Both the position numbers and the translations under genes were made by a program. A stretch of 40,646 nt of DNA from Oscillospiraceae bacterium. GTDB taxonomy: Bacteria; Bacillota; Clostridia; Oscillospirales; Ruminococcaceae. Positions 1 to 1,146 of the stretch are shown piece by piece; within the stretch, counting starts at the first letter, position 1, and each line of letters begins with the position of its first letter. The notes below the pieces were generated by a model. That model was not told where the DNA came from, did no database searches, and saw only the letters and a list, made by a program, of their open reading frames with translations. The stretch spans positions 1 through 40,646 of the forward strand of contig JAKSPK010000021.1 in NCBI GenBank assembly GCA_024404875.1, given 5' to 3'.

Positions 1-17
1 CTTCTGACTGAATATCA

Positions 18-460
18 AAAGCAGTCAAGGCAAATCTGGCGGAACGGGGAATAGGGGTGAGGAAAAAGGGGGGTGCGGGGGAGAAAACCTAAGGGGGAAG
101 GGGACTGTGAGCGCCAAGCGAACCGTCCTCTTCCCCCTTGGGTGTTCATCCCCCGACCGTGCGGAACGGCTTAAACGGAAAACATACAATCAAAGCAAAT
201 TGGGAATCCAACAGCACCGCCTACCATATTCTCTATGTTCACCCCGTTTACTGTGGTTTGTGCTTTGACTGTCTCCAAGTATGTTGTTTTTGATTTTTCG
301 TCTCTGTGTCTCCAAGGGTGCGAGGGGGACCCATAAGAGAGGGAAGAGACAAGCGCCGCGATGCGGCTTAGTCTCTCCCCTCTCTTAAGGTTGCCCCCTC
401 GCGCTCCCCTTCCTTATCTCTCCTCTCTCCAAGTTCCGCCAGATTTGCCTCATCTGCTTT
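18..460 (+). ncRNA. Candidate large structured RNA or folded element
   Basis: This gene-free block folds into nested helices. An outer stem pairs 18-24 with 454-460 and, after a 3x3 internal loop, 28-45 with 433-450 (18 perfect pairs). Inside it, arm A pairs 76-82 with 149-155 and 88-105 with 125-142. A central arm pairs 181-187 with 279-285 and 190-197 with 261-268. Arm B pairs 316-328 with 394-406, 334-350 with 371-387 and 355-359 with 363-367. The purine-rich 46-74 faces the pyrimidine-rich 405-432. Four non-Watson-Crick pairs (90/140, 101/129, 317/405, 319/403) are G-U if the plus strand is RNA; one (344/377) is A-C. This favours a plus-strand transcript. The repeat TGTCTCCAAG occurs at 270-279 and 307-316. 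I recognise no family, and a MITE-like DNA palindrome remains possible. No promoter or U-tract is visible in the window. Confidence 0.5.
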
Positions 461-672
461 AACAGGCTTCACTTGTATCGTGCGCATAACAGGTACGCTG
501 TACACTGGCTATGCTCCCGATGCGTTCCGTTTCAGCCAAAGCAGCCATATATCAGATGCCCCAATCCCCCCAAAAATATTTTTCCGAACTGTGTGATATT
601 TTGCCGCTGTCATTCGTTTACTATACAGAAGCGCTTCTGAACAATCCAATCTGATCCGAGGTGAAAAACTCT
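461..672. other. Intergenic leader before ECF sigma gene
   Basis: The stretch between the folded element and the sigma factor gene holds no supported gene. An AT-rich segment around 585-630 (including TATACA at 622-627) could carry the sigma-gene promoter, but I could not find a -35/-10 pair with good spacing. The GAGGTG at 658-663 is the likely ribosome binding site of the next gene. Confidence 0.3.
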
Positions 673-1146
673 GTGGAACAACAGAAAATGGAACAAATCT
701 ATGATAAATACCACGAATCTGTCTATCGGCTCGCTTTCGCATACTGCAAAAACCGCGCAGACGCAGAGGATATCACCTCGGATGTATTTCTCAAGCGCTT
801 TGCGAGCAACAAATCATTCGATTCCGAAAGCTATGAGACCGCATGGATGATGCGCGTCACAGTCAATCTCGCGAAAGATCTGCTCCGCTCATTCCGCTAC
901 CGTTTCAGTGTTCCGCTCGAAACTGCGAACCTGATCTTTGAATCGCCGGAGGAAAGCGAGGTCTACCGCGCTGTCATGGATCTGCCCGCAAAATACCGCT
1001 CAGTGATACACCTATACTATTATGAGGGCTATCCGGTCACGAAAATCGCACAGATCATCGGAAGAAGTGAGACCGCTGTTCAGACGCAGCTTTACAGGGC
1101 ACGAAAGCTGCTGAAAAAAGCGCTTGGAGAGGAGATGGAGCTATGA
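673..1146 (+). CDS. ECF-type sigma-70 family RNA polymerase sigma factor
   Basis: Extracytoplasmic-function sigma factor of 157 aa, expected to direct RNA polymerase to a small regulon when released by its membrane partner. Region 2 is visible near the N-terminus (YRLAFAYCKNRADAEDITSD, the usual AEDITSDVF core). Region 4 follows near residues 100-150 (LPAKYRSVIHLYYYEGY, then IAQIIGRSETAVQTQLYRAR, a helix-turn-helix). The reading frame is open from GTG at 661. I prefer GTG at 673, because GAGGTG at 658-663 then sits 9 bases upstream; ATG at 688 is a third option. Its stop overlaps the next start (ATGA at 1143-1146), the classic arrangement of an ECF factor and its anti-sigma partner. The regulon and signal are unknown. 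Confidence 0.9.
   Translation: MEQQKMEQIYDKYHESVYRLAFAYCKNRADAEDITSDVFLKRFASNKSFDSESYETAWMMRVTVNLAKDLLRSFRYRFSVPLETANLIFESPEESEVYRAVMDLPAKYRSVIHLYYYEGYPVTKIAQIIGRSETAVQTQLYRARKLLKKALGEEMEL

What the first reader, a model, noticed from the sequence alone, without database searches (positions are those of the whole stretch)
18..460. A 443-base folded element of unknown class
Five or more nested helices, including an 18-bp perfect closing stem, lie in a gene-free block. The mismatches in the stems are mostly G-U pairs for the plus strand (4 of 5), as expected if the RNA structure is under selection. It fits no family I can name. Long purine/pyrimidine stems with small capped arms would be unusual for a riboswitch and closer to large ornate noncoding RNAs, or to a transposable palindrome.
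Basis: partly seen in the sequence, partly recalled or inferred. Interest (0 to 1): 0.7.

Follow-up and report, generated by a model that had tools for sequence, protein, structure and literature searches.

The report
Mobile hairpin repeat, two facing copies
The folded block is two opposite-facing copies of a mobile hairpin repeat that is scattered through one bacterial genus and found in related genera, and whose fold is kept by matched mutations; what the hairpin does is not known.

Summary
The fold is real: z -10, 0 of 100 shuffles as stable, with an 18-bp perfect stem at 28-45/433-450. It is not one 443-nt RNA but two inverted copies of a ~125-nt module (36-158 + and 315-440 -), each a purine-rich leader plus an ~85-nt imperfect hairpin. 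The closing stem mostly follows from having two inverted copies. Elsewhere the modules stand alone or in other arrangements. A covariance model matches 27 of 30 genus genomes, genomes of 11 other genera in a family sample, and none of 298 other genomes of a phylum sample. Rfam has no match in the window. In 32 non-redundant hairpins 24 of 28 pairs covary; 0 of 500 shuffles reach this. The modules travel in short repeats with terminal inverted repeats. In one complete genome 7 of 8 module-bearing repeats lie between two direct copies of a terminator-like stem-loop. I read it as a new family of non-autonomous, MITE/REPIN-like elements carrying a conserved, probably transcribed hairpin module. 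Its transposase and function were not identified.

The parts
36..158 (+). Module copy 1: purine-rich leader followed by an ~85-nt imperfect hairpin (hairpin about 77-158)
   Evidence: R1 match 77.1 bits (the copy was in the model's training set, A1); nhmmer 77-156; fold
315..440 (-). Module copy 2, opposite orientation: leader at about 408-440, hairpin at about 316-407, read on the - strand
   Evidence: R1 match 105.7 bits (also in the training set); opposite-strand match of the hairpin alone 316-407
28..45 (.). 5' arm of the 18-bp perfect closing stem, at the outer side of copy 1
433..450 (.). 3' arm of the closing stem, at the outer side of copy 2
159..314 (.). Middle stretch: the hairpin-side flanks of the two copies facing each other; parts are shared with other copies
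   Evidence: blastn coverage of 17-538 by other loci; comparison with L028/L029/L155 by eye
451..538 (.). Continuation of the second half element beyond the finding
   Evidence: 18-538 matches L005 (G023) at 97.3%

Best explanation
Window 18-538 is a piece of a family of non-autonomous mobile palindromic elements (MITE/REPIN-like) spread through this genus and its bacterial family. The elements carry one or two copies of a conserved ~125-nt module: a purine leader of the type AAGGAAAG.GGGAG, then a hairpin with a nearly invariant AACC/GGTT clamp and recurrent mismatches. In the window two modules from two half elements stand in opposite orientation, which makes the apparent 443-nt fold. Shown: the modules are homologous, multi-copy, dispersed and constrained in structure. 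Shown in relatives only: they sit inside repeats with terminal inverted repeats, and in G199 these repeats lie between two copies of a terminator-like stem-loop. Inferred: a transposase acting in trans moves the elements; in G199 they insert into terminators and duplicate the stem-loop; they settle at gene ends where they do little harm; the module is transcribed leader-first by read-through and works as an RNA hairpin (processing or insulation of the 3' end). I give the mobile-family part about 0.85, an RNA-level role about 0.45.
For: Family: 24 of 30 genus genomes by blastn, 0 of 70 of other genera; R1 27 of 30 genus genomes, 12 genera in 197 family genomes; unrelated contigs at best 16.6 bits. 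Constraint: 24 of 28 pairs covary, 183 double-change cells against 69.7 shuffled, 0 of 500; slid by one, pairing falls from 88.2 to 66-68%. Mobility: 66 ends of one type in G199, reversed control 0; 69 ends of another type in 8 genus genomes, control 0; 7 of 8 module-bearing G199 loci bracketed by direct stem-loop copies; 49 of 74 G199 ends against 51 of 1480 random positions have such a copy. RNA strand: G-U 59 against A-C 35 leader-first, T-tract orientation 6 of 7 by eye.
Against: No transposase was found: Y1_Tnp in 3 of 30 genus genomes, IS1634 model over cut-off in 0 of 28, no element above 700 bp in 40 G199 stretches. The window's own copy shows no terminal repeats or target duplication (contig edge). 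In the window's genus only 2 of 41 loci showed a stem-loop-bearing direct repeat on both sides. Small G199 repeats without the module share the same ends and stem-loop copies, so the module is not needed for targeting. The G-U excess is modest and may be mutational. No expression data. Within the genus of G199 other genomes have no match (e.g. G044, G353).
Confidence: 0.7

Rival explanations
1. The hairpin acts as DNA (cruciform or single strand) recognised by a recombinase or transposase, and is not a functional RNA.
For: It lies in mobile repeats; inverted pairs resemble REPINs (passages of PMC3116915); covariation also arises when a DNA palindrome is selected (cannot separate the two).
Against: G199 repeats without the module have the same ends and stem-loop copies; leader and hairpin have a fixed polarity, and G-U exceeds A-C leader-first, 59 to 35; Y1_Tnp is rare (3 of 30).
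Confidence: 0.3
2. The module is a transcription stop: read from the hairpin side, a GC-rich hairpin followed by a C/U-rich tail (a Rho-binding-like tract) guards the element from both sides when two modules face inward.
For: C/U-rich tail after the hairpin in the 59 units listed; inward pairs in several genus loci.
Against: In G199 single modules mostly face the other way relative to the upstream gene; no test of termination; the Rho reading is recalled knowledge.
Confidence: 0.15
3. A single large ornate noncoding RNA of about 443 nt.
For: Very stable fold; no Rfam match.
Against: Modules occur singly and in other arrangements; the two hairpins are homologous and inverted.
Confidence: 0.05
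4. An assembly artefact: a palindrome made at a contig end.
For: The block starts 17 bases from the contig edge; several other copies sit at contig edges.
Against: A 99% identical copy lies inside a 46.8-kb contig of G023.
Confidence: 0.04

Closest known systems
MITEs (BOX, RUP, SPRITE and similar small mobile repeats)
   Same: Short, dispersed, no ORF, inverted repeats; in pneumococcus such elements insert into one another and SPRITE is terminator-like (PMC10969869, passages)
   Different: A conserved module with strong covariation that sits in repeats with different ends in different genera
REPINs / REP doublets with RAYT transposases
   Same: Inverted doublets of a palindromic unit, extragenic, predicted hairpins in ssDNA or mRNA (PMC3116915, passages)
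   Different: Unit of ~125 nt instead of short REPs; Y1_Tnp in only 3 of 30 genus genomes
IS1202 group insertion sequences
   Same: Unusually long target duplications, 16-28 bp in the paper (PMC10132070, passages); here direct copies of median 25 bases
   Different: Paper found no shared target for the long-duplication group; here stem-loops; no such transposase was searched for
Group IIC introns
   Same: A terminator or attC stem-loop lies at the insertion site (PMC7923331, passages)
   Different: No group II intron match in the Rfam scans; terminal inverted repeats and duplicated target point to DNA transposition

Membership tests
MITE | Multi-copy, dispersed, too short for a transposase gene | tested here: met
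   24 of 30 genus genomes, up to 68 model matches in one genome, both strands counted; no ORF of 80 aa or more in 18-460
MITE | Terminal inverted repeats | tested here: inconclusive
   Met for relatives; not visible for the window copy, which runs to the contig edge
MITE | Target-site duplication | tested here: inconclusive
   Direct stem-loop copies on both sides in 7 of 8 G199 loci; 2 of 41 loci of the window's genus incl. the window; empty sites not examined
MITE | Related autonomous element | tested here: not met
   None above 700 bp in the 40 G199 stretches examined; not searched in the other genomes, so this does not settle it
REPIN/RAYT | Inverted doublet of a palindromic unit | tested here: met
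   Window (36-158 +, 315-440 -) and several loci; singles also exist
REPIN/RAYT | RAYT (Y1) transposase in the genome | tested here: not met
   PF01797 in 3 of 30 genus genomes, not in G000
Rfam families (4227) | Match at the gathering score | tested here: not met
   0 in the window; over the modules of 15 relatives only matches below gathering, mostly miRNA-hairpin models
IS1202 family | IS1202-type transposase with matching ends | not tested
   Only the IS1634 model NF033559 was run (0 of 28 over cut-off)
Group IIC intron | Group II intron RNA core | tested here: not met
   No such Rfam match in the window or 15 relatives

The most novel reading that the evidence does not exclude
The ~125-nt module is a portable structured RNA, confined to one bacterial family in the samples searched, that is carried by several unrelated kinds of small mobile elements and helps them live at gene ends; in one genus these elements insert by cutting at the base of terminator stem-loops and so duplicate the whole terminator, a hairpin-directed way of insertion that none of the paper listings I searched described.
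Probability: 0.25. Interest if true: 0.8.

Novelty: new variant of a known kind. Interest (0 to 1): 0.5.

Why it matters
If true, it adds a family of structured mobile repeats with a clear covariation signal to bacteria for which Rfam holds no model of it. It also offers a testable case of elements that enter terminators and copy them, so that the host gene keeps a terminator after insertion.

Tried and rejected
Three pattern scans of viral contigs found nothing; exact patterns would miss diverged copies. A tetraloop-receptor reading of CCUAAG/UAUGG and an integron attC reading were dropped by eye (both motifs recalled). A small-ORF reading of the hairpin-less relative at C75 was not pursued. 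RVT_1 occurs in 17 of 30 genus genomes; I did not look for a link to the repeats. An outer inverted repeat TACTNATATAGAAGTTTTG (52 sites in 11 genomes at up to 2 mismatches, 3 control) did not lead to a transposase.

Counts and drops. The first alignment A1 (42 units) pairs the arms partly out of register, so the statistics were redone from landmarks. Of the 145 matches I gave 90, leaving out opposite-strand, truncated and weak ones; one had no landmark, and 89 became 32 at 85% identity. The register was chosen by best pairing around the AACC/GG landmark, so the counts lean somewhat towards the structure. R2 was built from 79 matches that include five or more opposite-strand ones. Pattern control: G199 66 matches and control 0, but G180 1 match and control 6, G184 2 and 0. 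Large model searches used stricter filters and scored few candidates per genome, so absences there are weak.

Papers: search listings only; passages of PMC10132070, PMC3116915, PMC10969869 and PMC7923331. None of these listings showed a repeat described as this one; most subscription journals are not held.

Full report
What is there. Window 1-500 folds to -239.1 kcal/mol, z -10.03, with 0 of 100 dinucleotide shuffles as stable. The 18-bp perfect stem is at 28-45/433-450. No ORF of 80 aa or more starts before 661, where a sigma-70-like gene begins (Sigma70_r2 and Sigma70_r4_2 over cut-off). The window is a whole contig (C29, 40,646 bases) of a 2.37-Mb assembly in 114 contigs, so the element sits 17 bases from a contig edge.

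It is two copies of one thing. The 5' hairpin on the + strand and the 3' hairpin on the - strand align as members of one family, and both match a covariance model built from 42 such units: 36-158 (+) with 77.1 bits and 315-440 (-) with 105.7 bits (both were in the training set). The module reads: purine-rich leader, then an ~85-nt hairpin. In other loci modules stand alone, in inward pairs, in outward pairs or in the same direction. The window's arrangement recurs as a 99% identical copy in G023 inside a 46.8-kb contig, and in part in G019. The closing stem is thus mostly a consequence of two inverted copies.

Distribution. With blastn, 24 of 30 genus genomes match and 0 of 70 genomes of other genera. 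With the covariance model R1, 27 of 30 genus genomes match at E 1e-3, with up to 68 matches in one (a palindrome can match on both strands and only part of the candidates is scored, so this is not a copy count), and 18 of 197 family genomes at 1e-5, in 12 of 125 genera. With R2, built from 79 matches including other genera, 6 of 295 genomes of the order sample match, all six in the same family, and in the phylum sample only the own genome, 1 of 299. Presence is patchy: in the genus of G199 (g16) other listed genomes have no match. 764 kb of unrelated contigs gave at best 16.6 bits, E 0.097. Rfam has no match in the window; over the modules of 15 relatives there are only matches below gathering, mostly miRNA-hairpin models.

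Structure is under constraint. In 32 non-redundant hairpins, registered by the AACC/GG landmark, 88.2% of 895 cells pair, 24 of 28 pairs show changes on both sides (183 cells against 69.7 shuffled), and 0 of 500 shuffles reach any of the five measures; sliding the partner by one drops pairing to 66-68%. AACC/GGTT is nearly invariant. A.G at position -3 occurs in 12 of 32, U.U or U.G at +2 in 21 of 32. Leaving out +2 and +3, G-U is 59 and A-C 35 in the leader-first reading, a modest excess. The leader motif of the type AAGGAAAG.GGGAG recurs in most of the 32 (listing; one row had no GGAA).

They ride in mobile repeats. In G199, a 2.69-Mb genome in one contig from another genus, eight module-bearing copies align over about 550-600 bp, with ends of the type CAGWYTGTHGAWAAA: 66 sites in G199 and 0 for the reversed control; G184 2 and 0, G180 1 and 6. 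Seven of the eight are bracketed by two direct copies of a terminator-like stem-loop that differs from locus to locus. Over 74 such ends in 40 G199 stretches, 49 have a direct copy of 12 bases or more within 60-750 bases, against 51 of 1480 random positions in the same stretches; 29 of the 49 copies, and 18 of the 51, hold a stem of 5 bp or more. Size classes of about 175 to 600 bp share these ends. Among those aligned only the largest carries the module, and classes differ by inserted segments, several of them palindromic. The simplest reading is insertion into terminators with the stem-loop duplicated; empty sites were not examined. Elsewhere the sign is weaker: 2 of 41 loci of the window's genus (L179, L182) and one of 12 loci of other genera (L224) have a stem-loop-bearing direct repeat on both sides.

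In the window's genus other ends are used. ATAAATCRGAATTT occurs 69 times in 8 genomes, with 0 control matches. In four pairs of ends 434 to 519 bases apart two modules lie between (L259, L263, L264, L269), and in L262 at least one; other pairs enclose genes (see noticed in passing). The left side of three module-bearing copies in G223, another genus, has the same motif, one of them with a changed base; a matching right end was not found, save a two-mismatch site in L303. The window's subtype in G023 (L155) has instead imperfect inverted arms of about 60 bases around a ~630-bp element, by eye. In the own genome a fragment at the end of contig C75 has both flanks of a module without its hairpin, by eye, as if the hairpin had been lost or not yet gained.

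How it works, and how sure. Shown: a multi-copy repeat family and a structure-constrained module; in relatives, repeat ends and stem-loop copies. Inferred: movement by a transposase acting in trans, which I did not find, and transcription of the module by read-through from the upstream gene. The second rests on the T-tract orientation, 6 of 7 by eye, on upstream ORFs that in the clearer cases run in the same direction (several of the 12 are ambiguous or lack flank) and on the G-U excess. The function of the hairpin is open: RNA processing or insulation is my first choice, a DNA role the main rival.

Known relatives. MITEs and REPINs are the nearest kinds (passages). REPIN membership fails on the transposase. 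Long target duplications with no known target are described for the IS1202 group (passages); I did not search for its transposase. Group IIC introns sit at the same kind of stem-loop (passages), but Rfam gives no group II intron match here.

Noticed in passing
L253 (G000:C13, own genome), L254 (G000:C19), L260 (G023:C183): Single-gene cassettes between the inverted repeats ATAAATCRGAATTT, in L253 and L260 with a promoter-like TTGACA-TATAAT just outside on one side and in all three a terminator-like stem-loop on the other. Cargo: a SUKH (SMI1_KNR4) gene over cut-off in L260, weak P-loop matches below cut-off in L253, no match in L254.
   Followed up: partly
L252 (G009:C101), 329-1427: The same inverted repeats about 1.1 kb apart around a 319-aa ORF with a weak alpha/beta-hydrolase match below cut-off.
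   Followed up: no
L258 (G025:C25): What looks like an empty form: the two inverted repeats only 64 bases apart between the promoter-like and the terminator-like flank.
   Followed up: no
G199 size classes (L227, L228, L230-L232, L240, L241, L317, L318): Repeats of about 175, 245, 313 and 375 bp look like one another with further, partly palindromic segments put in: nested growth of palindromes.
   Followed up: partly
L230 (G199): Two repeats in a row with three copies of the same stem-loop around and between them.
   Followed up: no
L208, 1369-1559 (-): A 6S RNA match (49.3 bits, gathering 46.4) next to one of the G199 elements.
   Followed up: no
window 661-1146 (+): ECF-type sigma-70 gene directly downstream of the element; the 686-aa ORF behind it has no Pfam match at 0.01.
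   Followed up: no
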